Assembly: GCA_900318115.1 (NCBI GenBank) | Contig: ONJJ01000031.1 | Location: 1-64,000 of the forward strand | Direction of reading: 5' to 3' | From: an uncultured Prevotellaceae bacterium | GTDB taxonomy: Bacteria > Bacteroidota > Bacteroidia > Bacteroidales > Bacteroidaceae | Length of the DNA stretch: 64,000 nucleotides | Shown: piece by piece, positions 48,829 to 63,025 of the stretch | Layout: the number at the start of each line of letters is the position of its first letter | Numbering within the stretch: the stretch's first letter is position 1 | Position numbers and translations under genes: made by a program | Notes under the pieces: model-generated | Seen by the model: only the letters and a program-made list of their open reading frames with translations | Told to the model about the DNA's origin: nothing | Databases searched by the model: none

Positions 48829-49632
48829 TCAGAAGGCATCAGCCATGAGGTCGTGGCGACCGATGAGGCTGAAGATGCTGATGCGGTTGTCCTCGTTGAG
48901 GATGCGCAGGGTGCGCAGAATCTCACCGAGGGTGCTTCCGCTGGTGGTGACGTCGTCGATGATGAGCACGTTCTGCTGGCGGATGGTGGCGCACAACTCC
49001 TCGTCAGCCTTGGTCGCAAAGCGAAGGAACTGGGTCATGTAGGGGCGGAAGCGGCTTTTCTTGACGTCGCGTGCGATGGTGAAGTAGTCCTTGTGGTGGA
49101 TGAGGTCAAGCATCTGCTGGATGCTGTCGCGTACCTGCTGCTTCTGTGCCTCGGTGTAGCGGGGCCGCCCATTCTCAAGCACATCGTTGAGATATTGTTT
49201 TTCGTATGCCTGCATGTCGAACGAGATGTTCGTGGGCAGGTTTTTCAGCAGCTCGACCTCCTGCAGCATCGGCTGCGCGAAGCGGTAGATGTAGCGGAGC
49301 ATGTATTGGTTGACCTGGCTCGACGACTCGGGCATGACCACGAGGTTGAAGTCGTAGAGGTTGATGCGACGGTGGAGGCAGTCCACGGCTTTCTTGATGA
49401 ACTGAGTCAGGTCGGGCTGGTCCTGCAGGCGGTCCGTGAACTTGACGTGATGGATGAAGGCGGTGCGGAGGGCGCCGCTTACCTCGTCGCCGAACTCATA
49501 GCCGTAGTAGAAGCAATGGCCGAAGGCCTCCACTTGATAGCCGTCGCCGGTGAGGCTGACGAGGTCGTCAACACCATCGTGCTCAAAGTCGAACACGAAT
49601 CGCTGTGTCTCGTTGTCGAAGCTTACACCCAT
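48829..49632 (-). CDS. Phosphoribosyltransferase-domain protein
   Basis: The protein of about 267 residues ends in a PRTase-type domain whose PRPP loop VLIIDDVTTSGSTLGEIL (about residues 220-237) is the clear type I signature. The N-terminal two thirds (QPDLTQFIKKAVDCLHRRINLYDFNLVVMPESSSQVNQY) include a split PRTase core with inserted helices. Its substrate cannot be told; ComF-like or regulatory roles are possible. I use ATG 49632, since the longer frame includes the -7 element TACTTTTG at 49663-49670. It lies between nhaA and the restriction island. Confidence 0.8.
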   Translation of the reverse strand: MGVSFDNETQRFVFDFEHDGVDDLVSLTGDGYQVEAFGHCFYYGYEFGDEVSGALRTAFIHHVKFTDRLQDQPDLTQFIKKAVDCLHRRINLYDFNLVVMPESSSQVNQYMLRYIYRFAQPMLQEVELLKNLPTNISFDMQAYEKQYLNDVLENGRPRYTEAQKQQVRDSIQQMLDLIHHKDYFTIARDVKKSRFRPYMTQFLRFATKADEELCATIRQQNVLIIDDVTTSGSTLGEILRTLRILNEDNRISIFSLIGRHDLMADAF

Positions 49633-49662
49633 ATCTTGATGACTTTGATGTCGTTTCCGCCA

Positions 49663-49670
49663 CAAAAGTA
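49663..49670 (-). promoter_or_regulatory. -7 element for the phosphoribosyltransferase gene
   Basis: TACTTTTG on the minus strand is 30 bases upstream of the chosen start at 49632. Confidence 0.55.
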
Positions 49671-49744
49671 CATAAAATCGTGGAGATGACAAAAGAAATG
49701 CTGTTTTTTTCGTCGGAGGCGGGGCTGAAAAGGTTTTTTTCATC

Positions 49745-49785
49745 GAAAAAGACCGCGCCGTTAAGAGGACGCGGTCTGTTTTGCA
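49745..49785 (-). terminator. Terminator hairpin of repeat module B (end of the hsdR transcript)
   Basis: GACCGCG and CGCGGTC pair (49751-49776) around a 12-base loop; on the minus strand the stem is followed by TTTTT. A near-identical hairpin at 61511-61550 goes with repeat copy C. Confidence 0.85.
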
Positions 49786-49912
49786 AAACAGAATTTCAAA
49801 AACCTTGCTAACCTTGCTAATTTCCTTAAAATGTGTTAAGCAGACAAGCCAGACTGCTTCAGCAGACCTTGCACGCTCGGCGCTTGTGCCGCTTGACAGT
49901 TCAAGAAGTCTC
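49783..49912 (-). repeat. 3'-end repeat module, copy B
   Basis: A 130-base element starting 54 bases downstream of the hsdR stop and running into the terminator at 49745. It has the same length as copy A and similar sequence. With the terminator it forms a direct repeat with copy C, and the two bracket the whole restriction island. Confidence 0.88.
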
Positions 49913-49966: not shown

Positions 49967-52900
49967 TCATTCTTCCAAGTGACTATCCGCTTTATATTCC
50001 ACTTCTTCTTCTGCTGCCATGCTATATGACCTCTGCTGCATTTCGATGATATTTGTCGCGGGCTGCTTGGCGGCTTCTCGGACCATGGGTGTATAGCTTC
50101 CAATGATGCGCTTCCAGTCCATGATGCCCATATCCGGATAGCGCTCGCCGAATTGTTCCATCACCTCGCGCTGAAGTTCTGCATCGGAGGTCGCTGGGTT
50201 CAGTTGCAGGCGGTTGTAGATGAGGTTGCGCACGTCGCGGTCATCTTCGATGCTGGCTAGCTTACGCTCCACATAGTTCTCATCATCGTCAGCCCACTTG
50301 TTGCACTGAGCCATGACTGTTTCCAGGGCCTTCTCCTGTCCTTCGGGCGGATATTGGTATTTCTTTAGCAGTCGTTTTACCAATACGCGCATCTTCGCAC
50401 GGGCAGACTCCTTGCGGTTCCAGTCGATGGTGCGATTGCGGCGAAGTTGTTCTGTCAGCTCACAGGTGAGTGCCACAAACTGTTCGTCGGTATAAGCCTC
50501 GCGGATGCCTTCTGGCGAAGACAAAGCATCGTAGAAAGCTTTTTCTTCAATGGTCAGTCCTAGTTTGTTGCTTTCTTCCTCGTTCCGCTTAATGTCCTCA
50601 GCCATCTTCAGCAGTTCCTCAATGACCTCCTCGTTGGTCAACATCCCTTTCAGGTAGTTGGAGAGAGCCATATTCAGCAGGTCGGAGAATTTCTTGCTCT
50701 GCACCACGTTGGTACGTTCAAAGCTGTGGATGCGTTCCTTCAGCAGGCGTTCCAGCAGTTTCACGGCCAGGTTCTTCTCCTTCATTTTCCGTATCTCCTT
50801 CTGGAATGCTTCCTCAAAGAGCGAGAAGTTGGCTCCTTCCGACTTGAAGAGGTTGATGACCCCCTGGCTTTGGATGCTCTGCTCCAGGAGATGGCTGATG
50901 CGCTCGTTGATGTCCTGTTTGGTAATCTTCCCTTTCTGCGCCAGACGTGACAACAGCACACGCACGGCATCCATGAAGGCCACTTCCTGTTTCTCTTGTG
51001 GCTCGGCCAACGAACGGCAAAGGGTCAGTGCATTGTGCAGCAGTTGACTCTCCTTCATGAAGTCCTTCATCTGCTCCGCACGCCCGGGAGCCAGCATGAA
51101 GTTGACGCCACCTTTGATTAACTGCGCTCTCTCTGGGTCTGTGCCAGCATAGAAGCCACTATAATCAAAGCCGTACATCAGGTCACGGCATATCTCCAGC
51201 TTCTCTTGGAACTTTACTCGCGCCGTCTTGTTGATATCCGGGTCTCCAAACTGCTGACGGTCGCGCTGCGTGTAGTCCTGCATAGCCTGTTTCAGTGCTC
51301 CGGCAATACCTACGTAATCGACGATGAGACCGCCCTCCTTTTCAGGGAACACTCGATTGACACGGGCGATGGCCTGCATCAGGTTATGTCCCTTCATCGG
51401 CTTATAGACATACATCGTTGCCAGCGACGGCACATCGAAGCCTGTCAGCCACATATCCACCACGATGGCAATCTTCATGGGCGACGCATCCTCTTTGAAC
51501 AAGGCTGCATACTCCTTGTTCATCTTGGGCTGTATCACATCGTGCCACTCTTCCTTGTCCGTATTGGCAGCACTGGCCACCACATGCACTTTCTCCGTCC
51601 ATTCGGGGCGCAGTTCCAGTATCTTACGATATATCTTCACCGCCGCCTCCTTGTTATACGCCACAATCATAGCCTTGCCCGTCAACTCCTGTTGGCGGTT
51701 CTTTTCATAGTGCTCTATGATATCGCGGCAAAGGCTGTCGATGGTATCAGGATGACAGAGTATCTGCTTGATGCCGCTGTTGTCCTGCCGTGCCTTATTG
51801 ATTTGTTCTGGTGAGGCTCCTTCCTCTGCCAGTCGGTCAAACTCATCATCCAGTTTCTTTAGTACCTCCTCATCCAGTTTCAGATTGACCACACGACTCT
51901 CGTAATAGACTGGTCGTGTGGCACCATCCTCCACGGCTTGCGTCATGTCATACACATCGATGTAGTCGCCGAATACCTCCTTGGTGTCGCGGTCGGCTTC
52001 ACTGATAGGCGTACCCGTAAAACCGATGAACGACGCATGAGGCAGCGCCTCACGCATCAACAGCGCATAGCCTTTCTTCATGCGCTCGGCTTTCACGTCC
52101 CAATGTTCGTCACCATACTGTGAGCGGTGGGCTTCATCGGTGATGACGATGATGTTCTCGCGTTCTGATAGTAAGCCAGTTTCTTCCTCAAACTTCTGTA
52201 TCGTCGTAAAAATGATGCCGCCCGTCTGCAGGTCTTTCAGTTTGCGCACTAGGTCCTCGCGTCCGGCAGTCTTGGTCAACTTACCTTTTTCGTTCAGGTC
52301 GAAGCCTACGCGCTGCGGCTCCTGACGCAGGAACTTCTGGCAACCGGCAAACTGCTCATACAGTTGCTGATCCAGGTCGTTGCGGTCGGTCACCACCACG
52401 ATGGTGCACTGCGGGAACTGCTGAATCAGCCTGTGGACATAGAACACCATCGACAGCGACTTGCCGCTGCCTTGTGTGTGCCAGAACACACCAATCTTCC
52501 CATTGCCTCCAATCGCTTCGTGCGTCTTGGCAACAGCCTTGTTGACGGCAAAGTATTGGTGATAGGCTGCCATTATCTTTGCCGTGCGACCGTCTTTATG
52601 GTCGAAGCAGATGAAGTTCTGCAGGATGTCGATGAACCGTTCCCTGCGGAAGATGCCTTCAAAGAAAGTCTCGTAGTCAATGACCTCTGCCGATTCCGTC
52701 TTACCATCTCTCGACTTCCATTCCATATAGCGGTTCTGCTTGGCAGTGAGTGTTCCGGCTTTCGTGGTCAGCATGTCGCTGGTCACGGAGAAGGCGTTAT
52801 AGACAAACAGCGAGGGACATTTCTGCTGATACTGCTTGATTTGCAGATAGGCATCATCTTCCTCCACATGATCGTTGGCAGGTGATTTCAGTTCTATCAC

Positions 52901-53341
52901 CACCAACGGCAAACCATTCACAAAGACAATGATGTCGCAGCGTATCTTCTCTTTCTCTACGACGCGCCACTGGTTGCATACTTTGAACAAGTTCTGAGTG
53001 GGATGTTCGAAGTTCATCAGCCGCACAAGTGCCGTCTGGTTACGTCCATCAGCCACATACTTCACCTCAACACCGTTTTGCAGGTAGTCCATCATCTGCT
53101 CATTGCGCTGTTCCAGCGTGCCCTCATTCACATGCGTCACAATGCGGTATGCCTCTGTCAGCACCTCGTCGCTCATCTTCGAGTTCAGTTTGCGTAACGC
53201 CCGTTGCAGGTCAGCCCCATACCACGGTTCGCGGAAGTCTCGTTCCACGTCGTAGCCGCATTCATACTGGTAGCCCATCCGCTTGAATAGGTCTATCAGC
53301 GTCTGCTCATAGCTGTCTTCTGTGAATTGGTTGATGCTCAT
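49967..53341 (-). CDS. hsdR: Type I restriction enzyme, motor/nuclease subunit HsdR
   Basis: The 1124-residue protein has the type I R-subunit order: a PD-(D/E)xK nuclease core with Asp136 and V-I-E-L-K (Glu150, Lys152), then a superfamily 2 translocase with Walker A HTQGSGKS (about 289-296) and DEAH at 402-405, RecA domain 2 (VDMWLTGFDVPS and ARVNR segments) and a helical C-terminus. It translocates and cuts unmethylated DNA with HsdM and HsdS. Length is normal and no disruption is visible. Its start overlaps the hsdS stop (ATGA). It is the last gene of the operon. Confidence 0.95.
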   Translation of the reverse strand: MSINQFTEDSYEQTLIDLFKRMGYQYECGYDVERDFREPWYGADLQRALRKLNSKMSDEVLTEAYRIVTHVNEGTLEQRNEQMMDYLQNGVEVKYVADGRNQTALVRLMNFEHPTQNLFKVCNQWRVVEKEKIRCDIIVFVNGLPLVVIELKSPANDHVEEDDAYLQIKQYQQKCPSLFVYNAFSVTSDMLTTKAGTLTAKQNRYMEWKSRDGKTESAEVIDYETFFEGIFRRERFIDILQNFICFDHKDGRTAKIMAAYHQYFAVNKAVAKTHEAIGGNGKIGVFWHTQGSGKSLSMVFYVHRLIQQFPQCTIVVVTDRNDLDQQLYEQFAGCQKFLRQEPQRVGFDLNEKGKLTKTAGREDLVRKLKDLQTGGIIFTTIQKFEEETGLLSERENIIVITDEAHRSQYGDEHWDVKAERMKKGYALLMREALPHASFIGFTGTPISEADRDTKEVFGDYIDVYDMTQAVEDGATRPVYYESRVVNLKLDEEVLKKLDDEFDRLAEEGASPEQINKARQDNSGIKQILCHPDTIDSLCRDIIEHYEKNRQQELTGKAMIVAYNKEAAVKIYRKILELRPEWTEKVHVVASAANTDKEEWHDVIQPKMNKEYAALFKEDASPMKIAIVVDMWLTGFDVPSLATMYVYKPMKGHNLMQAIARVNRVFPEKEGGLIVDYVGIAGALKQAMQDYTQRDRQQFGDPDINKTARVKFQEKLEICRDLMYGFDYSGFYAGTDPERAQLIKGGVNFMLAPGRAEQMKDFMKESQLLHNALTLCRSLAEPQEKQEVAFMDAVRVLLSRLAQKGKITKQDINERISHLLEQSIQSQGVINLFKSEGANFSLFEEAFQKEIRKMKEKNLAVKLLERLLKERIHSFERTNVVQSKKFSDLLNMALSNYLKGMLTNEEVIEELLKMAEDIKRNEEESNKLGLTIEEKAFYDALSSPEGIREAYTDEQFVALTCELTEQLRRNRTIDWNRKESARAKMRVLVKRLLKKYQYPPEGQEKALETVMAQCNKWADDDENYVERKLASIEDDRDVRNLIYNRLQLNPATSDAELQREVMEQFGERYPDMGIMDWKRIIGSYTPMVREAAKQPATNIIEMQQRSYSMAAEEEVEYKADSHLEE

Positions 53342-54012
53342 ATTGCGTTTTCTATTTCGTTTACTTTTAGTTCGCCTGACATCAAGCGAGGAAGAAGGGT
53401 GTCGCGGAGTTGTGCAAGGCGGCGGGATTCTTTAAGCATATATCTTATTTCTTCAAATAGGGGCTTTGTAATTTTACTGAAGTCTGATATTACACTCGTT
53501 GGAGGCATAAGCAACTTCATCCCTTTTATCGTCTTTGAATTAACAGCTGTTGCAATAGATGAAGTGCTACCAAGATTTTCATATTTGTATTGCTTTAGAT
53601 ATAAATATAAAAACTCACGGTAATATTCGGCAGGAAGAATAAACCTTGCTATAGCTTCATTGCTAGTTAGCCGAGTATCGGCTATAGCAACCCTTCCAAC
53701 AGTTAGTTTAAAACTAAGCAAAACTGTATCCTTTTCAACCATAATAATATTAAATCTATCTATCGCTTTATCTGTTAGATATACGCTGGAATCAGATATA
53801 AACATACCACATGAGCCCATATCAGCTATGGATACCCATACATTGTCTTTGTTAGAATCAGAAAACCATTCTTGTTCTTTTCGTGGAGGTGTTTTCCCGA
53901 TGTTTATTTCAAAAACGTCATTTGCTGTTTGTATGCTCCAAGTTCTAGGAATCATCCCCACTTCCGACTCCACAAAAGGTTGGTCACGGAAAGGCTCAAA
54001 GTCAACAACCAC
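53338..54012 (-). pseudogene. hsdS: HsdS specificity subunit, C-terminal half (frameshifted off)
   Basis: This 224-codon frame holds the second target-recognition domain (from EVGMIPRTWSIQTANDVFEI, about residue 20) and the final conserved helix (LRDTLLPRLMSGELKV). It opens in the central conserved region at V-V-D-F-E-P-F, which in intact HsdS continues directly from the F-K-S-W of the upstream half. The only start is a GTG at 54012 without its own leader. Restoring one T at 54007-54008 joins both halves. Its stop overlaps the hsdR start. Confidence 0.88.
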
Positions 54013-54602
54013 GACTTAAACAGAGCCTGTGCCTGCTGCTCTAAATTATCGTTTATCCGCCTGTTCACCTCGATTTTGTCATCAAGGGAATGAAGTATTT
54101 CCATAATTGCAGTTTGTACTTCCATTTTGGGAACAGGTACAAGAACCTCCTTAAATGTAGATGTCGGTCTTGCTAATGCAGGAACACCGACTTGTGAAGC
54201 ATTTGCTAATAGCCTATACTGCCCCATCCTTGTATGGAAGTAGTATACAAAGAAATCAGGCCTGATTACCTTACTTTTGACTGTTAAACGAAACTGACTG
54301 TTCCCTGTTAGGTATCTCTCATATTTAGAATCATTTGGGATATATGAGATTTGGCCAATTGTTCCTCTATGTGTAACTATTATGTCCCCCCTTTTGGCAA
54401 CGCATCTTCCAAGACTCTCTGCCTTTTCTTTTGTAACATAATTGAAAGAATCCTCATTAAGTTTATATGAGTTTAAATTAGACCCATTTAAGTATGGAAC
54501 ACCAGAATCAACATAATTGTCTCTTTTGATGTTTGATCCAAATGGCCCCATTGAAATATCTTCAATAACTTCTGCGACTTTATATTCTTTCCACTCTTCC
54601 AT
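53952..54602 (-). pseudogene. hsdS: HsdS specificity subunit, N-terminal half (frameshifted)
   Basis: This frame holds the first target-recognition domain (about residues 1-175, MEEWKEYKVAEV to the VPVPKMEVQTAIMEIL helix) and the central conserved helix LDDKIEVNRRINDNLEQQAQALFKSW. After that it runs out of frame (LLTLSLSVTNLL) and stops at 53952. The expected continuation is encoded one frame away. A single-TRD half-subunit can in some systems dimerise, so partial function is conceivable. The ATG at 54602 is preferred to the start at 54629, which would overlap the nuclease gene. Confidence 0.88.
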
Positions 54603-54606
54603 AAGC

Positions 54607-55641
54607 TCACTCTCCTTTGTTTTGCGCAAGGCGTTTCACCTCATTGATTTCTTGAATCAGCTGTTCTTGGGTTGGGAGGTATAGTTGATACTCGCTGGCA
54701 AGAATAGTTTTGTTATCTTCGGGCAATGTCATGCGTACAACCGTGTCGTTTTTGGCTGTGCAAAGAAGTATGCCGATAGTGGGGCTCTCATCGGGTAATT
54801 TAACGTTACGGTCGTAGTAGTTAACGTACATCTGCAGCTGCCCTAAGTCTTGATGGGTTAATTCGCCCGTTTTCAGTTCAATGACTACATGGCAGCGTAG
54901 CAGACGATTGTAGAACACCAGGTCGGCAAAGAATTCATCGTCTTCGAGCAAGAGTCTCTTTTGTCGGGCTACAAACGAAAAACCTTTACCCATTTCCAAT
55001 AGGAAATCAGTGAGATGAGTGATGATGGCACCCTCTAAGTCCTTTTCATAGTAGCTGGCTTCTCGGTGCAAACCAAGGAATTCCAACACCATCGGGTCCT
55101 TAATGATTTCAGTTGGCTCCTCTGGTATGCGTTGCTGGCGTGCCACAGCTAGAACGCTCTCCTTGTCATTGCTCATGAGCAGACGTTCATAGAGCATAGA
55201 GTTAATTTGACGTTCCGTTTCACGTGCTGTCCAGGCGTTGTTTACGGATTCCAGTTCATAATACTCGCGTTTGTCGGGGTCTGATATGGAAATAAGTAGC
55301 TTATACTGAGACCAATTCAATTGCGACCGCACTGTGGACGCAATTGGATAAGTCCTATAAAATTGACGTGCTCGCTCTAATTGCCGTACACCAAAACCAG
55401 TACCAAATTCTGGTTCAAGACGGTTGGCCAGCGTTCGAGTCAAGTAAGCACCATAGTCGGCGCGTTCCTTACCGTGTTGCTCTTCTTCAAAGATACGTTG
55501 TCCCAAGTGCCAATACATCTGAACACGACAGAAATCCACACTACGCACAGCATTACTACGGGCTGATTCTATAATCTGCCTGGCATCCGCATACAAGGAT
55601 TCCAACTTTTGTTCGTTATTTATTATTTTCTTCTCTTCCAT
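54607..55641 (-). CDS. DUF1016/YhcG-type PDDEXK nuclease
   Basis: The 344-residue protein has a DUF1016 N-terminal helical domain (about 10-165: QMYWHLGQRIFEEEQ, YGAYLTRTLANRLEPEFG, FSVRQLERARQFY-like helix) and a C-terminal PD-(D/E)xK nuclease domain (DLVFYNRLLRCHVVIELKTGE, with the catalytic Asp, Glu and Lys). YhcG-like proteins are often carried inside type I restriction loci; their task is not settled (DNA ends or recombination have been proposed). It sits between the unknown gene and hsdS, five bases from hsdS. Its 5' junction is identical over 26 bases to that of the rhuM relic at 61128. Confidence 0.9.
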   Translation of the reverse strand: MEEKKIINNEQKLESLYADARQIIESARSNAVRSVDFCRVQMYWHLGQRIFEEEQHGKERADYGAYLTRTLANRLEPEFGTGFGVRQLERARQFYRTYPIASTVRSQLNWSQYKLLISISDPDKREYYELESVNNAWTARETERQINSMLYERLLMSNDKESVLAVARQQRIPEEPTEIIKDPMVLEFLGLHREASYYEKDLEGAIITHLTDFLLEMGKGFSFVARQKRLLLEDDEFFADLVFYNRLLRCHVVIELKTGELTHQDLGQLQMYVNYYDRNVKLPDESPTIGILLCTAKNDTVVRMTLPEDNKTILASEYQLYLPTQEQLIQEINEVKRLAQNKGE

Positions 55642-55651
55642 AAATGAGAAT

Positions 55652-56623
55652 TTATAGCATTATTTCACAAGAGCCGGTATGGCTCAGTTCTTGTATCTTG
55701 GTTTTCACATCTTCATTCCATTTAACAATGTCGGGACGATGTTCATCATCGAAGCAGGCTAATATCTCATCCCGCATTTTAGGAACAAAGAGACCTTCTA
55801 AGATGTATAATTGTTCCTTTGCGAAGAACGACAAAGTATATTTATGAAGCCTCCGAATCAGCATAAGAGCTTCGCTGACTACGCCATTGACGTTCTGCTC
55901 GTTCATATTCATTATAAGATTACTCATGCTTAACCCATGAGCATACTGCGAAATGTATGAGAGCAAATCAAAACCATTACAAGCATCTATCAGTTCATAG
56001 AGGTCTTGCCATTTATACTGATTACTTCCTTTTTTCTTGTAATATTTAAAATCTTTGAATTTCCAGTTTCGATCCTCTACTATTTTGTCGAATGCAGCTT
56101 TGTCTTGCTGTTCTAAAGGGGAGGCATCAAGCAAGTCCCGTGCTTCGCGAATCATGCGACGCCTGAGTTCTTGGTTGAAACGCGTTGCTTCGCCCAATGC
56201 CTCTAATTCCTCATCTGGTAGACAGCCCTCATTAATATTCTTGTCTGGCAGAACTTCTAAATTTCTTTCGCAACCATCTATCACATAGAGCGCATGACGC
56301 AGGATAAGGAGATCTTTATCGGGCTCTCTATAGATTAATTTGAATATAGCTACACAATCTCCCAGCATTCTTAAAATGCAATTAGCTGTAACATAGTCCT
56401 TGTGCTCTACAACAACTTTGAGAAAGGTGTCGAACGACTTCAGGCGTATATAACAGAAATGAGCCACGTAACCTTTCAAATCCTGAACGGAGGCATACCT
56501 ATATAAATCGGTAATTCTCTTTACCGTATTCATATACATGTAAAAAGAATATAAGAACCGGTTAATAGTTATATAACCGAATTCCTCTGTTCCGTCTATA
56601 TGATATTTAGGCCCCATGTCCAT
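55652..56623 (-). CDS. Unknown 323-residue protein in the restriction operon
   Basis: I do not recognise the family with confidence. The product is cytoplasmic and looks mostly helical, with a helix-rich core (YVAHFCYIRLKSFDTFLKVV, LRMLGDCVAIFKLIYREPD) that recalls DUF5677-like HEPN-related or AbiV-like folds, but without a clear R-x4-6-H catalytic motif that I can point to. It is full length, low in GC, and coupled by a one-base stop-start overlap to the gene upstream. The DUF1016 gene starts 10 bases downstream. Position suggests a defence-associated accessory; this is inference. Confidence 0.75.
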   Translation of the reverse strand: MDMGPKYHIDGTEEFGYITINRFLYSFYMYMNTVKRITDLYRYASVQDLKGYVAHFCYIRLKSFDTFLKVVVEHKDYVTANCILRMLGDCVAIFKLIYREPDKDLLILRHALYVIDGCERNLEVLPDKNINEGCLPDEELEALGEATRFNQELRRRMIREARDLLDASPLEQQDKAAFDKIVEDRNWKFKDFKYYKKKGSNQYKWQDLYELIDACNGFDLLSYISQYAHGLSMSNLIMNMNEQNVNGVVSEALMLIRRLHKYTLSFFAKEQLYILEGLFVPKMRDEILACFDDEHRPDIVKWNEDVKTKIQELSHTGSCEIML

Positions 56624-57006
56624 TACTTCTTTTTTGCTGCCTCAACAGCCTTCTCAAACTCTTCCTTCGAGCATGGCTTACGCAGAATCCAGTATGAACT
56701 GGTTTGAGAAGAACCAGTCCCTTGAAATGATGAGCCTTTAGACGTTGCACCATTTAAGTACATCTCCCAACCTTGAGAAATAAAATACATCAATGCGCCT
56801 GCGGGTGTTGAGAATCTCGCCTTTTCACCTTTATCATTACGCATTCGTTTTACTTCTATCCCATCGTCATAATAAACTTTAAAGTCTTCTTTAGTAAAAT
56901 CACCTTCAAAAGATACAATGTTGTAGAGGTAATACTGTTTCTCCTCCGACTGACAGAACCCAGCCAGGGGAATAAACAGTAAAAACATTAATAACAATTT
57001 CTTCAT
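56623..57006 (-). CDS. Small exported protein of unknown function in the restriction operon
   Basis: The 127-residue product has a signal peptide (MKKLLLMFLLFIPLAGFCQ) without a lipobox, so it should be periplasmic. The end (QGWEMYLNG, SSYWILRKPCSKEEF) resembles a family of small exported Bacteroidales proteins with a W-E and Y-W-x-L-x-K pattern of unknown role. An exported protein is unusual inside a restriction operon. Its stop codon overlaps the start of the next gene by one base, so the pair is likely translated together. Confidence 0.75.
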   Translation of the reverse strand: MKKLLLMFLLFIPLAGFCQSEEKQYYLYNIVSFEGDFTKEDFKVYYDDGIEVKRMRNDKGEKARFSTPAGALMYFISQGWEMYLNGATSKGSSFQGTGSSQTSSYWILRKPCSKEEFEKAVEAAKKK

Positions 57007-57069: not shown

Positions 57070-57249
57070 CTATCTGGCAACAAATTTTGAACGCACTGCG
57101 TACAAAATTGTCTGAACGTTTGCAGTCTCGCCATTTCCCTTCAAGAAATGGTAAGCGTAGGCTTGCGCCTGGTCAATTATCAGACATGCATCATGAAACA
57201 GCACATTATTTTGCTGTTTAGCCATTATTATATTCTTGTCCTCTTCCAT
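57070..57249 (-). CDS. Short 59-codon ORF directly after hsdM
   Basis: It starts six bases after the hsdM stop (ATG at 57249) and reads MEEDKNIIMAKQQNNVLFHD, then ACLIIDQAQAYAY and stops at 57070. The QAQAYAY region looks like the start of a DUF1016 or related accessory gene, after which the sequence diverges, so it may be a remnant. It shares the MEE start with the DUF1016 and rhuM genes. An imperfect palindrome (CAAATTTTGAACG with its partner) lies within it at about 57083-57110. Confidence 0.45.
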   Translation of the reverse strand: MEEDKNIIMAKQQNNVLFHDACLIIDQAQAYAYHFLKGNGETANVQTILYAVRSKFVAR

Positions 57250-57255
57250 ACCTTA

Positions 57256-58767
57256 TCAAACATTGAATCCAATACTCCCTAACTGCTTTCGGATCTCCTC
57301 CTCCAGTCGGTGGCTCTCGGCAAAGAGTCCGCTCAGCTCCGATGTCAGCCGTTTCATCTTGTCCTCAAACGGCTCGCCGTCGTCTTCCTGCTCGGCAATG
57401 CCTACATATCGGCCAGGCGTGAGGATGAAGTCCTGCGCACGGATGTCGTCGGTGGTACGCACGGCGCAGAAGCCTTTCTCGTCTTCGAGTGTACCACTGC
57501 GGAACTGATTGAAGGTGTCTGCGATACGGGCGATGTCCTCCTGCTGCAACTCGCGCACGGCACGGGTCACCATCGTTCCCATCTGGCGAGCATCGATAAA
57601 GAGCGTCTTGCCGGGTTGCTGCTTGTTGCGCGTAAGGAACCAGAGTGATACGGGAATGCCCGTAGAGTAGAACAGCTGCGACGGCAGGGCGATGATGCCT
57701 TCCACCAAGTCGGCCTCAATAATACGCTGACGAATGTCTCCCTCGCCACCAGTCTGCGATGACAAGGCACCGTTTGCCAATACCAGACCAATGCGACCCG
57801 TAGGCGAGAGGTGGTGAATCATGTGCTGCATCCAGGCGAAGTTGGCGTTGCCGGCAGGCGGCAACCCGAATTTCCAGCGTGGGTCTTTCTCCAACTTGTC
57901 CGCTCCCCAGTCGCTGAGGTTGAACGGCGGATTGGCCATGATGAAGTCGGCCTTCAGCGTGGGGTGCTGGTCGTTGAAGAACGTGTCGGCATACGACTGT
58001 CCGAGGTTGGCTTCCAACCCACGGATGGCCACGTTCATGTGCGCCATCTTCCAGGTGGAGGGGTTGGCCTCTTGGCCATAGACACTGATACCCGACAGTT
58101 CCTTCTGGTGGTTTTTGATGAACTTGGCACTCTGCACAAACATTCCGCCCGAGCCGCAGCAGGGGTCATAGACACGGCCTTGGAAGGGCTGCAGGATCTC
58201 AACGATGGTGCGTACGATGCAGCTGGGCGTATAGAACTCGCCAGCATTCTTACCTTCCATCGAAGCGAATTTCTGCAGGCAGTATTCATAGACGCGCCCC
58301 AACAGGTCTTTTTCATCGCCAGAGGCATACATCTCGATGTTGGAGAAGAGGTCAACCACATCGCCCAGGCGTCGCTTGTCCAACTCCGGACGGGCATAGT
58401 TGCCAGGCAGCACACCCTTCAACTTCGGGTTCTCGCGCTCGATGGCCAGCAGGGCATCGTCGATGATTCGTCCAATCTCAGGTGTATGTGCCGACAGGCT
58501 GATGACATTCCATCGGGCTTCCTGCGGTACGAAGAACACGCCGTCAGCTTCATACTCGTCCTTATCCTCCACATCGGCGTATTCATCTTCAGACAGTTCC
58601 TTGAACTTCACTTCAAACTTGTCGCTGATATACTTTAGGAAAATCAGGCCGAGCACCACACCCTCATACTCCGAGGCATTCAGGTTACCACGCAGTTTGT
58701 CGGCTGCTCGCCAAATCACCTCTTCAAACCCTATCGAGGTCGTATTTTCGTTCTTTTTCTTTGCCAT
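57256..58767 (-). CDS. hsdM: Type I restriction-modification DNA methyltransferase subunit HsdM
   Basis: The 503-residue adenine methyltransferase has an N-terminal helical domain (about 1-160), the SAM-binding motif DPCCGSGGMF (201-210) and the catalytic NPPF (279-282). It methylates the host sequence recognised by HsdS and is part of the restriction complex. It is the first gene of the operon and looks intact. Its leader (58768-58841) is repeated at 61343-61416, but the promoter found in the second copy is missing here because the similarity stops just before it. Confidence 0.96.
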   Translation of the reverse strand: MAKKKNENTTSIGFEEVIWRAADKLRGNLNASEYEGVVLGLIFLKYISDKFEVKFKELSEDEYADVEDKDEYEADGVFFVPQEARWNVISLSAHTPEIGRIIDDALLAIERENPKLKGVLPGNYARPELDKRRLGDVVDLFSNIEMYASGDEKDLLGRVYEYCLQKFASMEGKNAGEFYTPSCIVRTIVEILQPFQGRVYDPCCGSGGMFVQSAKFIKNHQKELSGISVYGQEANPSTWKMAHMNVAIRGLEANLGQSYADTFFNDQHPTLKADFIMANPPFNLSDWGADKLEKDPRWKFGLPPAGNANFAWMQHMIHHLSPTGRIGLVLANGALSSQTGGEGDIRQRIIEADLVEGIIALPSQLFYSTGIPVSLWFLTRNKQQPGKTLFIDARQMGTMVTRAVRELQQEDIARIADTFNQFRSGTLEDEKGFCAVRTTDDIRAQDFILTPGRYVGIAEQEDDGEPFEDKMKRLTSELSGLFAESHRLEEEIRKQLGSIGFNV

Positions 58768-58841
58768 ATCTGGTAGTTCTTATCTTTAGGAATCATCCCG
58801 CAGGAAGACGGGTAAGTCCCGCGTTTTCTGCGTGTCACGCG
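58768..58841 (-). repeat. hsdM leader, copy next to the intact gene (promoter lost)
   Basis: This 74-base leader, including an inverted repeat around CCCGCAGGAAGACGGG, is nearly identical to 61343-61416. The match ends at CACGCGC, three bases before the -7 element that the other copy retains; here the palindrome GCCCCTTTGGGGC follows instead. So how the intact operon is transcribed is not obvious. Confidence 0.9.
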
Positions 58842-58880
58842 CCCCAAAGGGGCAGCAAGCATTAGGGCATGGATTATTTT

Positions 58881-58948
58881 AGGACACAGAGGCACAAAGA
58901 CACAGTGCCGATTATTTTTTTTCTCTGTGCCTCTGTGTCTCTGTGTCT
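58881..58948. repeat. Imperfect inverted repeat; dispersed hairpin family, copy 2
   Basis: The arm GGACACAGAGGCACAAAGAC and the downstream complementary arm (CTGTGCCTCTGTGTC) flank an AT-rich centre with eight T. It resembles the element at 1653-1714. It lies between the hsdR relic and the intact hsdM leader and could terminate the relic operon on the minus strand. Confidence 0.65.
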
Positions 58949-59026
58949 AATAAAGTGGACTCACACTTCCAGAAGTCACTGGCAAGCATTGGAGGCGGAG
59001 GATTTGCCATATTGGCAGCCCCTCCG

Positions 59027-59086
59027 CTATGACTGGTCTGTCAGCGTCTGCTCATAGCAGTTTTCTGTGAACTGGTTCGTGCTCAT
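59027..59086 (-). pseudogene. hsdR: hsdR relic (first 19 codons only)
   Basis: Reading leftwards from 59086 gives MSTNQFTENCYEQTLTDQS and a stop, matching the start of the intact HsdR (MSINQFTEDSYEQTLIDLF) with four or five changes. Its start overlaps the fic stop in the same ATGA manner as intact hsdS-hsdR. The rest of the gene is gone. Confidence 0.85.
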
Positions 59087-60120
59087 ATCCCGTCTATCAT
59101 TACTTTCCAATAGCCCGTCTTGTTGCTGCCGACACGTTCGATGAGTCCTACACCTCGAAGTACAGAGATGTGTTTGCGGGCCATACGGTCACTAATTCCT
59201 AATGTTTCTCCCAATTCTTGAGATGTTATGCCGGGTTTGCGTTTGATGCTCATAAACACATCCCACACAGCATCCGACAACTCAGGGAATTTCCTCTTTA
59301 TTTTATTAGGAACTTTATTAGGAACTTTATTAGGAATATTCGTGGGAACTTTATCAGGAAGGGGCTCCCCTTGGTGAGCCTTCAGCGTATGGAATATCTC
59401 CTTCAGCATGAAGTCGATGAACGGTCCCGACTGACCTGCGTTTGTGCTGGCAGTGATGGCATCGTAATAGGCTTGCTGATTGGCATAGACCATATTCTCT
59501 ACAGGCAGGTGTTCAAACAGCGGATGCAGTTTGCCAAGAATCAGAGATTGCCACAGTCGTCCTGTACGACCATTGCCATCGATGAACGGATGGATAAACT
59601 CAAACTCATAGTGGAACACGCATGAACGGATGAGCAGATGATCCTTTGAATGCTTCAACCAGTCGAACAGGTCGCCCATCAGCAATGGTACTCGGTCGGC
59701 AGGAGGTGCCATGTGTACCAACCCCTTCTCGCCAAACACGCCCACGCCTCCGCGCCGATAGCGTCCTGCATCATCCACCAATGCCTGCATCATCACGCTG
59801 TGCGCCTTCAGTAGGTCTTTCTCTTTGAAGGCATCAAGTGTGGAGTAAAGCTCATAGGTAGCGATGGCATTCTTTACCTCCTGAATCTGGCGGATTGGAG
59901 CCACCACGTTCTTGCCGTCGATGATGTCGCGCACCTCATCCTCGCTCAGTGTGTTGCCTTCTATGGCCAGCGACGAGTGGATGGTCTTGATGCGGTTCGC
60001 CTTGCGGAGCCGAAGCCCGTCTTCCTGCTCCAGCCGGATGGCATAGCGCTCTATCTGACCGGAAATCTCCGCTATCAGATTGATGGCTTCTGTACTTACT
60101 GTAAATGGCGGTATATACAT
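59083..60120 (-). CDS. Fic-domain protein with winged-helix tail (class II)
   Basis: The 345-residue protein has the Fic core motif HPFIDGNGRTGR (177-188), the catalytic loop of AMP- or other nucleotide-transferring enzymes, and a class II-type inhibitory helix (S-L-A-I-E-G, about 50-55) upstream. After residue about 250 there is a short tandem linker of repeated P-N-K-V units, then a winged helix-turn-helix (about 275-340). It is intact, lying between an hsdS tail and an hsdR start in the decayed restriction locus. A DNA-linked regulatory or toxin-like function is possible. Confidence 0.9.
   Translation of the reverse strand: MYIPPFTVSTEAINLIAEISGQIERYAIRLEQEDGLRLRKANRIKTIHSSLAIEGNTLSEDEVRDIIDGKNVVAPIRQIQEVKNAIATYELYSTLDAFKEKDLLKAHSVMMQALVDDAGRYRRGGVGVFGEKGLVHMAPPADRVPLLMGDLFDWLKHSKDHLLIRSCVFHYEFEFIHPFIDGNGRTGRLWQSLILGKLHPLFEHLPVENMVYANQQAYYDAITASTNAGQSGPFIDFMLKEIFHTLKAHQGEPLPDKVPTNIPNKVPNKVPNKIKRKFPELSDAVWDVFMSIKRKPGITSQELGETLGISDRMARKHISVLRGVGLIERVGSNKTGYWKVMIDGI
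59305..59358. repeat. 12-bp tandem repeat in the Fic gene linker
   Basis: About 4.5 copies of ATTAGGAACTTT encode the P-N-K-V-type linker between the Fic domain and the winged-helix tail. The unit is a multiple of three, so copy changes keep the frame. Confidence 0.8.
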
Positions 60121-60139
60121 ATTCTGTCCTTTCTTTATA

Positions 60140-60205
60140 TTATAACGTTACATCCCCCACTTTTATTTTACCAGACATCAAGCGAGGAAGAAGAGAGTCT
60201 GCCAA
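60140..60205 (-). pseudogene. hsdS: hsdS relic (last 21 codons)
   Basis: The minus-strand frame reads LADSLLPRLMSGKIKVGDVTL and stops, matching the C-terminal end of the intact HsdS (LRDTLLPRLMSGELKVNEIE). The upstream part is replaced by the REP-bounded transposase element. It lies 19 bases before fic. Confidence 0.88.
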
Positions 60206-60300
60206 CGGCCTGAAAGGCCAAAGAGCAGTCAGCCCAGGGCACCGCCCTGGGTATCTGTAATGACGCGCAACCTTCGCCCTGAAAGGGCAAAAGCATTCTG
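60206..60300. repeat. REP array, left flank of the RAYT gene
   Basis: Three palindromes in a row: CGGCCTGAAAGGCCAA, CCCAGGGCACCGCCCTGGG and CGCCCTGAAAGGGCAA. The same three units occur in inverted orientation at 60781-60892 on the other side of the transposase gene. Confidence 0.88.
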
Positions 60301-60311
60301 CCCCGATGGAA

Positions 60312-60767
60312 TCAATCCGAAAACACATATTTCTCATCATATTCAATGTTATACAACTTCAAAAAACTGATGTATTCATCGCGGAACGACACCTTCTTGT
60401 GGTGCTCCGTCTGATTCATCACATATTGCCTCGTCTTCTCCACAACAGACTGACTGACAGAAATTGCCGCATAGCCGCTCTGCCAAGCAAAACGATCATA
60501 TTTCGGCGATAACGTTTTCACCCACCGGCTACTGTTACGTTTCATTTCTTCAACGACGTGCGCCACCGATTCTGTTTTTGAAAACATCAGCAATACATGC
60601 ACATAATTGCCAATACCACCAACGCACAGCACCTGACAACCGGTAGAGTTGACGAGCGACCCGATATATTGATGCAGGCGCGGCAGATGCTCGTTCTCTA
60701 TCTCTGGACTTCCCGTTTTTATATGGAAGATGATGTGAAGATATATCTTACATAATGATTGTGCCAT
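60312..60767 (-). CDS. REP-associated tyrosine transposase (RAYT, Y1/IS200-like)
   Basis: The 151-residue product belongs to the Y1_Tnp/REP family: start MAQSLCKIYLHIIFHIKTG, the late R-Q-Y-V-M-N-Q-T-E-H-H motif carrying the catalytic Tyr, and the end YISFLKLYNIEYDEKYVFSD common in this phylum. The expected His-hydrophobic-His motif appears as N-Y-V-H-V-L, i.e. the first His is Tyr (TAT instead of CAT), so metal binding and activity may be lost. I use ATG 60767; the longer frame would extend into the REP array. Confidence 0.88.
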   Translation of the reverse strand: MAQSLCKIYLHIIFHIKTGSPEIENEHLPRLHQYIGSLVNSTGCQVLCVGGIGNYVHVLLMFSKTESVAHVVEEMKRNSSRWVKTLSPKYDRFAWQSGYAAISVSQSVVEKTRQYVMNQTEHHKKVSFRDEYISFLKLYNIEYDEKYVFSD

Positions 60768-60780
60768 ATTGATATTGCTA

Positions 60781-60892
60781 CAGGGCGTTACCCCGGGCTG
60801 GTTGCTTTTGCCCTTACAGGGCGGTTTTGTTTGATACGTGTTTTGACCTAGGGCGCTGCCCTGGGCTAACCGCAAATTGGCCTTTCAGGCCG
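60781..60892. repeat. REP array, right flank of the RAYT gene
   Basis: It contains inverted copies of the three left-flank palindromes (TTGGCCTTTCAGGCCG, CCTAGGGCGCTGCCCTGGG and TTGCCCTTACAGGGCG) plus a partial fourth (AGGGCGTTACCCCGGG). Confidence 0.88.
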
Positions 60893-61138
60893 TCCTTGAC
60901 GCGAAACAGACCTTTTGCCTTCCTGCTGAACTGTCAAGTATTCCTTGACTGTTGACGCCTGCTCCAGTTCACCTTCTTTAAACACATTGCTTACATGAAG
61001 GCTTACGTTTTGTTTGGTTGTCTGAAACAGTTCTACCATCTGAGCCTGTGTCAGCCACACCGTGTCATTCTCCAGTCGGACATCTATCTGTGTCTGTCCG
61101 TCCTCTGTCTGATATATGATAATGTCGTTCTCTTCCAT
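60866..61138 (-). pseudogene. rhuM: RhuM-family protein, truncated by the REP element
   Basis: The 90-residue frame matches the N-terminus of the RhuM family, often found inside type I restriction loci: ENDIIIYQTEDGQTQIDVRL, TVWLTQAQMVELFQTTKQNV (helix-turn-helix) and VKEYLTVQQEGKR. Family members run to about 330 residues, but here the match stops near K-R-S-V-S-R and the last codons come from the REP array. It is likely non-functional, though a free helix-turn-helix fragment could be made. I use ATG 61138. Confidence 0.85.
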
Positions 61139-61157
61139 AAATGAGAATTTATATGTA

Positions 61158-61342
61158 AAATCCAATACTCTCTGACTGTTTCTTAATCTCTCCCTCTAAG
61201 CGGTGGCTCTCGGAAAGAGAGCGCTCCGTTCCGTGGTCAGCCCGAACTTCCAGCATGGGCCTTTCTCCAGTTTGTCGGCTGCTCGCCAAATCACCTCTTC
61301 GAACCCTGTCGAGGTGGTATTTTCGTTCTTTTTCTTTGCCAT
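61158..61342 (-). pseudogene. hsdM: hsdM relic with two large internal deletions
   Basis: Three separate parts of the intact hsdM are joined: the first about 75 bases (61268-61342, like 58692-58767), an internal 35 bases (61241-61275, like 57865-57900) and the last about 85 bases (61158-61242, like 57266-57350). Order and strand are kept, so this is one gene eroded by two deletions. Similarity is about 85-95 percent by eye. Confidence 0.88.
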
Positions 61343-61416
61343 ATCTGGTAGTTCTTATCTTTAGGAATCATCCCGCAGGAAGACGGGTAAGTCCCGCGTT
61401 TTCTGCGTGTCACGCG
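61343..61416 (-). repeat. hsdM leader, copy at the relic (promoter kept)
   Basis: Nearly identical to 58768-58841. Here the -7 element follows directly upstream (61420-61427), showing the original arrangement of promoter, leader and hsdM. Confidence 0.9.
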
Positions 61417-61419
61417 CTG

Positions 61420-61452
61420 CAAAGATAGGCACAAATCACGTCCCTCCCAAAT
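61420..61452 (-). promoter_or_regulatory. Consensus promoter of the fossil restriction operon
   Basis: On the minus strand, TTTG at 61452-61449 and TATCTTTG at 61427-61420 are separated by 21 bases, a good Bacteroidota promoter. The -33 box lies inside a hairpin-forming sequence (61443-61481). Confidence 0.75.
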
Positions 61453-61481
61453 TTTTCATTGGAAAAATGTGGGGGAGGGGA
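61443..61481. repeat. Long inverted repeat overlapping the -33 box
   Basis: CCCTCCCAAATTTTTC and a matching downstream arm (GAAAAATGTGGGGGAGGG) pair with a short bulge around a 4-base loop. It covers the -33 element of the relic promoter, so it could be an operator. Confidence 0.6.
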
Positions 61482-61510
61482 TTATGAGACGGAAAAAACG
61501 ATGTTACTCC

Positions 61511-61550
61511 GAAAAAAAGACCGCGCCGTTGAGTGGACGCGGTCTTTTTT
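61511..61550 (-). terminator. Terminator hairpin of repeat module C
   Basis: GACCGCG and CGCGGTC (61519-61544) pair around a 12-base loop with A/T runs on both sides. On the minus strand it would end the VapE-like gene transcript; it can act in both directions. Confidence 0.88.
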
Positions 61551-61609
61551 GCAAAACAGAATTCCAAAATCCTTGCTAACCTTGCTAATTTCCTTAAAAT
61601 TTGTTAAGC
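61551..61609 (-). repeat. 3'-end repeat module, copy C (short)
   Basis: About 59 bases nearly identical to the distal part of copies A and B, including the doubled ACCTTGCTA-type unit, 48 bases downstream of the VapE-like stop codon. The proximal 70 bases are not conserved here. Confidence 0.88.
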
Positions 61610-61657
61610 GACGGGTTCAGTTGCTTCGCCCGACTCGGCTGCTCTGGAGTCCTCCGG

Positions 61658-63025
61658 CTATCCCTCGTTTAAGGGCACGGCGTAGTAGCTGTGGTTGCGC
61701 TGCCCCTCCTTGCGCTCGAATCCCAGACGGCTGAGTGCAATGCCCAGCTGCACGCGGGTGGAGCTGTTCTTGCGGACGGCGGGATACGCCTTGGCGATGA
61801 TGTCCAGGATCTCGTCGGTGCTCAGGTCGGGAGTGAACTCGTTCTCGCGAGGCAGGCGGAAGCAGGTGGTGACCATGGTCGCCAGATCCACGCTGTTCTG
61901 GTACCTGCGGTTGGCCTTCTGCAGGACCACGGACTGCTCGTCGGTCAGCCAGTAGCACTCGCCCAGAAGCAGTTCCGCGCGCAGCTGGGCGTAGAGCTGG
62001 TCGTACTCGATGGGTGTGGTGTTGTCGATGACCTTGCCGTCGGCCACCTCGATGCACAGATAGCGGCGGGAGCCCGTGGTGTCGTTCAGGGGGTGGCGGT
62101 TGTTGGTGGTGGCGGCAAAGCTGGCGTAGCGGCAGCGGTCGGTCTGGTTGGAACCCCAGATGCGGCGTCCGTTCACGCGTACCTTAGATACCATCTGCTT
62201 CAGCTCCGCCTGCTGGCTGGGGCGCACCTGGTCCAGCTCGTCGAGGTTCACCAGCAGGTTGTTGGTGAGTGCCATCTCCTTGTCGAACTTGTTGCCGAGG
62301 TTCACGTGGTCGAGGTAGTACTCGCGCAGGTGCTCCGGCAGCAGGCGGCGCAGGAAGGTGCTCTTGCCGCAGCCCTGGGCGCCGATGAGCGTCAGCACCA
62401 GCTCGTTGGCGTGGAGCTGGTTCAGCTGCAGCCAGTGGGCCACCATGGAGAGCATCCACACGTGAGCCCATGCTATCTGCTGGGCTGTGATGCCGGGGAT
62501 GCGGAGCAGCAACTGCACCACGCGGTTGCGCCCGTCCCAACGGGGTAGGTTGTGGAGATACCCGGCGATAGGATTCCAGGCGGGGGTGGCGCTGCTGTAG
62601 ATGCTGTCCTGGAGCTGGCTCTTCAGCCCTCGCTCCTTGGGCATCGCGCGGCGGGCAGCCACCACGATGGAGTTGAATTCCATCTTGTCGAGGGTGTGCC
62701 AGGCGGCATCGGCACCGTCCTTGCGTGCGCGGACCTCTATCTTATCTGCCAAGACGTTGTAGCGGAACTCATAGTGTTCGCGCAGGAAGATCTCCGCAGG
62801 CAGCAGGTCGTCCTCTGCCTCTGCCTGCGTCTGTGTGTGCAGACCGTCGGTCTGGTGGTCGTTCAGCAGGATTGCATCCTGCTCATGTTTGTGCTGGCTG
62901 GTGCTCAGTCCGTTTTCGGACAGGCTTGCGGCCTGCTCATGTTCGTTCAGGCGAGCGTCCTGCTCTGCCTGCAGATCGGGGCACCTGGTGTCGCCGATCT
63001 TGGTTACTTTTTTTTCATGCATCAT
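61658..63025 (-). CDS. Virulence-associated E-like ATPase (VirE/DUF3874)
   Basis: The 455-residue protein has an N-terminal Gln/His/Glu-rich tail (1-75), a linker domain with YLHNLPRWDGRNRV, and a VirE-type P-loop ATPase: Walker A GAQGCGKST (215-223), NLDELDQV as Walker B, and a TTNNRHPL sensor. The C-terminal part (about 395-455, STRVQLGIALSRLGFERKE) matches the DUF3874 domain. VapE-type proteins are superfamily 3-like helicases found in phages, islands and Bacteroidota chromosomes. No primase or integrase is adjacent, so its role here is open. Confidence 0.85.
   Translation of the reverse strand: MMHEKKVTKIGDTRCPDLQAEQDARLNEHEQAASLSENGLSTSQHKHEQDAILLNDHQTDGLHTQTQAEAEDDLLPAEIFLREHYEFRYNVLADKIEVRARKDGADAAWHTLDKMEFNSIVVAARRAMPKERGLKSQLQDSIYSSATPAWNPIAGYLHNLPRWDGRNRVVQLLLRIPGITAQQIAWAHVWMLSMVAHWLQLNQLHANELVLTLIGAQGCGKSTFLRRLLPEHLREYYLDHVNLGNKFDKEMALTNNLLVNLDELDQVRPSQQAELKQMVSKVRVNGRRIWGSNQTDRCRYASFAATTNNRHPLNDTTGSRRYLCIEVADGKVIDNTTPIEYDQLYAQLRAELLLGECYWLTDEQSVVLQKANRRYQNSVDLATMVTTCFRLPRENEFTPDLSTDEILDIIAKAYPAVRKNSSTRVQLGIALSRLGFERKEGQRNHSYYAVPLNEG

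What the first reader, a model, noticed from the sequence alone, without database searches (positions are those of the whole stretch)
59027..61510. Fossil second type I restriction operon beside the intact one
Relics in the expected order and strand (promoter and leader, hsdM with two deletions, rhuM fragment, hsdS tail, fic, hsdR start) lie directly upstream of the intact operon and match it in sequence. The leaders are nearly identical, so the locus was duplicated or acquired a sister module, and one copy decayed while keeping fic intact. It is a rare readable record of restriction-locus turnover.
Basis: seen in the sequence. Interest (0 to 1): 0.85.

Follow-up and report, generated by a model that had tools for sequence, protein, structure and literature searches.

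The report
Restriction-operon fragment inserted, leader duplicated
A broken piece of a bacterial DNA-restriction operon that still carries one whole gene, fic, most likely landed in the leader of a second restriction operon and copied about 150 bases of that leader on landing; similar fic-bearing pieces occur in related bacteria.

Summary
The relics are real: hsdM pieces, rhuM start, hsdS tail, whole fic and hsdR start lie in operon order, and a complete operon with fic between hsdS and hsdR exists in a relative (L034/L138). But "near-identical leaders, so the locus was duplicated" does not follow. Leader plus hsdM start match at 147 of 150 bases; the other comparable relic pieces differ at 38 of 233. 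This fits insertion of a restriction-operon fragment into the resident operon's leader with a 150-bp target duplication. Parallels support it: in Prevotella ruminicola KHT3 a bare hsdS-tail/fic/hsdR-start piece sits between 71-bp target copies, and a same-genus genome has the empty site. Direct repeats bracket solitary fic in 7 of 54 loci against 6 of 237 control positions. No empty leader site was found for the window itself, so gene conversion between two tandem operons remains possible. Long target duplication is known for restriction systems; fic-bearing fragments as cargo look like a new variant.

The parts
61420..61451 (-). Bacteroidetes-type promoter match TTTG-N20-TATCTTTG, upstream of leader copy 1
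   Evidence: Only such match, and only TAnnTTTG box, on the minus strand of 58768-61640; consensus recalled, function not tested
61268..61417 (-). Target copy 1: 75-nt leader + first 75 nt of hsdM
   Evidence: 147 of 150 identical to 58693-58842
61238..61280 (-). hsdM internal fragment (overlaps the end of copy 1 by 13 nt)
   Evidence: 84% to 57862-57904; best hit L055, 88%
61158..61242 (-). hsdM 3' end fragment
   Evidence: 66 of 84 identical to the resident hsdM end; better match L061, 83%
60896..61138 (-). rhuM N-terminal fragment, 81 codons
   Evidence: 82% DNA over 173 nt to L094
60205..60893 (.). Inverted REP-like repeats (60205-60303, 60795-60893) around the transposase ORF
   Evidence: related copies elsewhere in own genome; REP label recalled
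60312..60770 (-). IS200-like transposase ORF (RAYT type, label recalled), HUH motif broken
   Evidence: Pfam Y1_Tnp; only match in own genome
60140..60199 (-). hsdS 3' tail, about 20 codons
   Evidence: 85% over 41 nt to resident; 94% over 63 nt to L094
59083..60120 (-). fic, 345 aa, complete; motifs SLAIEG and HPFIDGNGRTGR
   Evidence: Pfam Fic E 4e-22; PADLOC SoFic E 5e-42
59008..59086 (-). hsdR 5' fragment, 26 codons
   Evidence: 68 of 78 identical to resident hsdR start
58883..58947 (.). Palindrome, stable hairpin, no T-run
   Evidence: fold z -6.6; similar stretches in own genome
58693..58842 (-). Target copy 2: leader + start of the resident hsdM
57256..58767 (-). resident hsdM, complete
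   Evidence: Pfam N6_Mtase E 5e-108 and HsdM_N
57070..57249 (-). Short ORF, start of a DUF1016 gene
   Evidence: 22 of 33 residues identical to L102's DUF1016 protein; no Pfam family on its own
54607..57006 (-). Accessory genes: 127 aa and 323 aa (no family found), DUF1016/YhcG nuclease
53338..54629 (-). resident hsdS, split in two ORFs by one missing base
   Evidence: Methylase_S in both halves
49967..53341 (-). resident hsdR, complete
   Evidence: HSDR_N, SWI2_SNF2, T1RH-like_C
61514..61609 (.). 96-bp direct repeat, upstream end of the locus, with a terminator-like hairpin
   Evidence: about 50 bp of it is dispersed in the genome
49746..49841 (.). 96-bp direct repeat, downstream end of the locus
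   Evidence: 94% to 61514-61609

Best explanation
A fragment of a different type I operon (hsdM pieces, rhuM, hsdS tail, fic, hsdR start) was inserted into the 5' end of the resident hsdM gene. About 150 bp of the resident leader and hsdM start were duplicated on insertion, so promoter P1 now stands before leader copy 1, followed by the insert with fic, leader copy 2 and the resident operon, which would be reached by read-through. The insert decayed (hsdM deletions, a repeat-flanked transposase where rhuM and hsdS sequence was lost) while fic stayed open. Shown here: the relics, the direct repeat, the identity contrast, the single promoter match, an empty site for a parallel case and one for the locus as a whole. 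Inferred: the insertion itself, the order of events, the read-through, and that fic is still used.
For: Identity contrast 3/150 vs 38/233, p 2e-6; coding bases only 3/76 vs 38/233, p 0.006. At two of the three mismatches all 8 rows compared (7 distinct contigs) have the base of copy 2; the third site varies and one row agrees with copy 1. No other genome matched more than the last 29 leader bases (139 genomes) or the first 17 (399 genomes; own included in both). In P. ruminicola KHT3 (L118) a 71-bp, 99% repeat of a host gene's start brackets hsdS tail-fic-probable hsdR start, with an empty site in G430. L041/L156: 126-bp, 91% repeat around 12 hsdM codons, fic and 32 hsdR codons. L161: short hsdS tail and fic within a 68-bp, 88% repeat. 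Solitary fic loci bracketed in 7 of 54 vs 6 of 237 control positions, p 0.004. Extra hsdR-start copies in 2 of 26 operons vs 0 of 52 controls.
Against: No empty leader site was found for the window itself. Gene conversion could also give near-identical leaders. The hsdR start of the relic matches the resident operon best of all, as a sister in tandem would. The missing promoter before copy 2 is weak evidence: 9 of 27 other hsdM loci also lack a TAnnTTTG box in 250 nt. 47 of 54 solitary loci show no bracketing repeat; solitary against operon loci (1 of 27) is not significant, p 0.18; control positions come from the same loci and are not independent. L153's repeat has a further copy. Draft genome, 86.97% complete.
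Confidence: 0.55

Rival explanations
1. Two sister operons stood in tandem, the upstream one decayed except for fic, and the leaders were made alike by gene conversion.
For: Relic pieces are in full operon order from hsdM to hsdR; operons of that order exist; the relic's hsdR start is closest to the resident one.
Against: Does not explain why solitary fic fragments elsewhere lie between copies of unrelated host sequence, once with an empty site. The resident operon would need a promoter of its own; no consensus match was found, though 9 of 27 other hsdM loci also lack one.
Confidence: 0.28
2. Assembly artefact: alleles of two strains joined at the 157-bp repeat.
For: Draft genome in 74 contigs.
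Against: The locus is inside a 90-kb contig; the same kind of architecture occurs in P. ruminicola KHT3, whose record title names a strain.
Confidence: 0.1
3. Recent duplication of the whole restriction locus, then decay of one copy.
For: Leader 97% identical.
Against: Other shared pieces are 79-87% identical; accessory genes differ; hsdM internal, hsdM tail and hsdS tail pieces match other genomes better than the resident operon.
Confidence: 0.05

Closest known systems
Insertion of restriction-modification systems with long target duplication (Nobusato 2000; Furuta 2010)
   Same: Target repeats of the order of 100 bp and variable length, linked to restriction genes (passages in PMC3874152 and PMC3031569).
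   Different: Here the cargo is an operon fragment with one complete gene, fic. Furuta 2010 is not held; Nobusato 2000 was seen only in reference lists.
rlo/mlo ORFs in Campylobacter jejuni hsd loci (Miller 2005)
   Same: Extra ORFs between hsdR and hsdS and between hsdS and hsdM (passage in PMC5183652; Miller 2005 itself not seen).
   Different: Other bacteria; here traces of a process that adds and frees such genes. The passage search of that paper found no fic or rhuM.
prrC embedded in a type IC operon
   Same: A latent effector gene inside a restriction operon (passages in PMC12707154 and PMC3874165).
   Different: Fic-domain protein instead of an anticodon nuclease; here left without its restriction genes.
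SoFic anti-phage protein
   Same: PADLOC SoFic E 5e-42. Sofic is described as an AMPylating abortive-infection protein (PMC12249575 passages) and is frequent in rumen genomes (PMC13356809 passages).
   Different: 57.8 bits against an NCBIfam cut-off of 550; nearest solved chain is 4rgl.

Membership tests
Insertion with long target duplication | Direct repeat of roughly 100 bp bracketing the insert | tested here: met
   150 bp, 3 mismatches
Insertion with long target duplication | Repeat present once at an empty site in a relative | tested here: inconclusive
   No empty leader site found; met for the parallel L118 against G430
Insertion with long target duplication | Insert carries restriction-modification genes | tested here: inconclusive
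   Only fragments of hsdM, hsdS and hsdR, plus whole fic
Type I restriction operon (resident) | hsdM, hsdS and hsdR all complete | tested here: not met
   hsdM and hsdR complete, hsdS frameshifted; whether the half-subunits work was not tested
Class II Fic / SoFic-like | Fic motif and N-terminal inhibitory motif (definitions recalled) | tested here: met
   HPFIDGNGRTGR at 177, SLAIEG at 50
Class II Fic / SoFic-like | Curated NCBIfam SoFic cut-off | tested here: not met
   57.8 of 550 bits
Class II Fic / SoFic-like | Anti-phage activity | not testable with these tools
   No assay possible
RAYT/IS200-type transposase | HUH catalytic motif | tested here: not met
   NYVH; first histidine present in 21 of 21 compared relatives

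The most novel reading that the evidence does not exclude
Accessory defence genes of type I restriction operons in gut Bacteroidales, fic above all, move as bare operon fragments without a transposase of their own: they insert at the 5' ends of expressed genes with target duplications of about 70-160 bp, which leaves the target gene whole and can give the cargo a promoter. The same process, with the hsdR start as target, builds operons with several accessory genes, and resident operons are entered by fragments of their sisters.
Probability: 0.3. Interest if true: 0.75.

Novelty: new variant of a known kind. Interest (0 to 1): 0.55.

Why it matters
SoFic is reported among the most frequent defence genes of rumen genomes (PMC13356809 passages). 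If part of the solitary copies are scars of restriction operons that spread by insertion with long target duplication, there is a route by which defence genes enter and leave such operons, and a signature (hsdS tail, fic, hsdR start, bracketing repeats) that can be counted in any genome set. It also warns that a near-identical leader beside diverged genes can be a footprint of insertion and is no proof of a recent operon duplication.

Tried and rejected
Leader as a conserved regulatory RNA: its fold is no better than shuffles (z -0.96) and the leader was not found in other genomes. Palindrome 58883-58947 as a terminator: stable hairpin without a T-run; the scan listed no minus-strand terminator. 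Empty site for the L041/L156 repeat: G036 matches only the upstream ATPase gene, no conclusion. Closer empty site for the locus: G088 matches vapE at 83% but the match ends at the contig end. L094 (hsdM tail, whole rhuM, hsdS tail, whole fic, no hsdR found) has no bracketing repeat apart from low-complexity ones.

Rows dropped or set aside: six loci on the same contigs as others (L034, L035, L036, L037, L040, L041) were dropped, and loci with under 700 nt on a side, L151 among them, left out, so 54 of 62 solitary and 27 of 31 operon loci were tested (one search gives 62 and 31). 'Solitary' means no tblastn hit over 400 nt to the hsdM or hsdR queries within 6 kb; distant restriction genes and contig ends may hide some. 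The window is in none of these counts. Partial hsdS hits in L037, L045, L052, L098 and L152 were not counted as scars because they lie in longer open frames. RM scars next to solitary fic: 5 of 62 (L094, L118, L156, L161, L162); 139 control segments gave none. Transposase motif: 19 of 31 non-own matches plus L111 and L114 were compared.

Full report
What is there. The window is bases 1-64000 of a 90-kb contig of a 3.33-Mb draft genome in 74 contigs, 86.97% complete. Six same-genus contigs have the same lengths as named records (for example G108:C2 and CAJOCU010000002.1, red deer), so the host is probably a gut Bacteroidales; this is inference. On the minus strand a type I operon runs hsdM (57256-58767), a short ORF, two genes without a family, a DUF1016 nuclease, hsdS and hsdR. 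Upstream of it lie pieces of another: hsdM fragments, a rhuM start, an hsdS tail, a complete fic and an hsdR start.

Between the rhuM start and the hsdS tail is an IS200-like transposase ORF with inverted repeats around it; it is the only match in the genome. Its HUH motif reads NYVH while 21 of 21 compared relatives have the first histidine, so it is probably inactive. The resident hsdS is split by one missing base. The ORF at 57070-57249 is the start of a DUF1016 gene: 22 of 33 residues identical to L102's protein.

Operons with fic. L034/L138 has complete hsdM, hsdS, fic and hsdR, with two short genes before hsdS and a Bro-N/Fic gene after fic. L102 has the order but its contig starts inside hsdM; L128 has hsdM 95% and hsdR 90% identical to the resident proteins, but its hsdR stops at codon 927. 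fic also lies in operons of more distant type I families, such as L097, L098, L126 and L133. So the relic descends from an operon of this order.

Why the leader is odd. The 75-nt leader is identical in both copies, and the next 75 nt of hsdM differ at 3 sites, against 38 of 233 in the other comparable pieces (p 2e-6; coding only 3 of 76, p 0.006). At two of the three sites all 8 rows compared (7 distinct contigs) agree with the resident copy; the third site varies. No other genome matched more than 29 of the leader bases. On the minus strand between 58768 and 61640 the only TAnnTTTG box, and the only full promoter match, is at 61420-61451, directly before copy 1. That is suggestive only: 18 of 27 other hsdM loci have such a box within 250 nt, 9 do not, and 7 have the full match. 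Copy 1 ends where an internal hsdM fragment begins. An insertion with a 150-bp target duplication would leave this. Pieces differ in their nearest relative: hsdM internal, hsdM tail, rhuM, hsdS tail and fic are closest to other genomes, leader and hsdR start to the resident operon.

Parallels. In P. ruminicola KHT3 (L118) a 1.27-kb stretch, 56 hsdS codons, fic and about 9 codons that look like an hsdR start (by eye), lies between two 71-bp copies of a host gene's promoter box, leader and start. In G430, same genus, the flanks are contiguous with one copy (94% and 93%): an empty site. In L041/L156, 12 hsdM codons, fic and 32 hsdR codons lie between 126-bp repeats. L161 has a short hsdS tail (E 0.003) and fic inside a 68-bp repeat. 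In one scan 9 of 91 fic loci (two of them one contig) had a bracketing repeat against 5 of 283 control positions. In a second scan with 700 nt on each side and E at most 1e-6: 7 of 54 solitary, 1 of 27 operon and 6 of 237 control positions; solitary against control p 0.004, solitary against operon p 0.18. Extra hsdR-start copies occur upstream in 2 of 26 operons (L138, L105) and in none of 52 control stretches. In L034, the same contig as L138, the extra hsdR start is followed by an hsdS tail closer to the window's type than to its own.

The locus as a whole. vapE (61658-63025) and a phosphoribosyltransferase gene (48829-49743) flank it; in G030 they are neighbours, about 190 bp apart. Of 16 phosphoribosyltransferase loci examined only this one had vapE next to it. 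In the window the 11.7 kb between are bounded by a 96-bp, 94% direct repeat. This may be an earlier insertion of the same kind, but about 50 bp of the repeat is dispersed in the genome, so recombination between dispersed copies is possible too.

Is fic kept? The frame is open with both Fic motifs. dN/dS against 15 relatives is 0.04-0.14 in the 11 with a finite dS, all with dS above 1, so the values are rough. This shows constraint in the family, not constraint since the decay. Fic of this type is described as an abortive-infection protein (PMC12249575, passages); activity here is untested.

Limits. No empty leader site was found; the promoter is a consensus match; read-through is inferred; the assembly is a draft. 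Literature: ten searches of the held library listed no title on fic-bearing operon fragments with long target duplication. I saw passages of seven papers (PMC12707154, PMC12249575, PMC3874165, PMC5183652, PMC13356809, PMC3031569, PMC3874152), for the first also its section 72.

Noticed in passing
window 53338-54629: hsdS of the 'intact' operon is split by one missing base; phase variation, real decay or an assembly error are all possible.
   Followed up: partly
window 60205-60893: A single RAYT-like gene with a broken HUH motif inside the relic, with related repeats elsewhere in the genome.
   Followed up: partly
window 54603, 55641, 57249, 61138: hsdS, DUF1016, the short ORF and rhuM all begin ATGGAAGAG, and 26 bases before and at the DUF1016 start recur at the rhuM start; a shared start block that might help gene swapping.
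   Followed up: no
L105:524-3800: Two extra hsdR-start copies upstream of the true hsdR, one of them directly before fic.
   Followed up: partly
window 49746-49841 and 61514-61609: A repeat with a terminator-like hairpin; its 50-bp part recurs in the genome, in several places as inverted pairs.
   Followed up: partly
L094:7740-10032: Another relic: hsdM tail, whole rhuM (with a Fic domain), DUF1016-like scrap, hsdS tail, whole fic, no hsdR found.
   Followed up: partly
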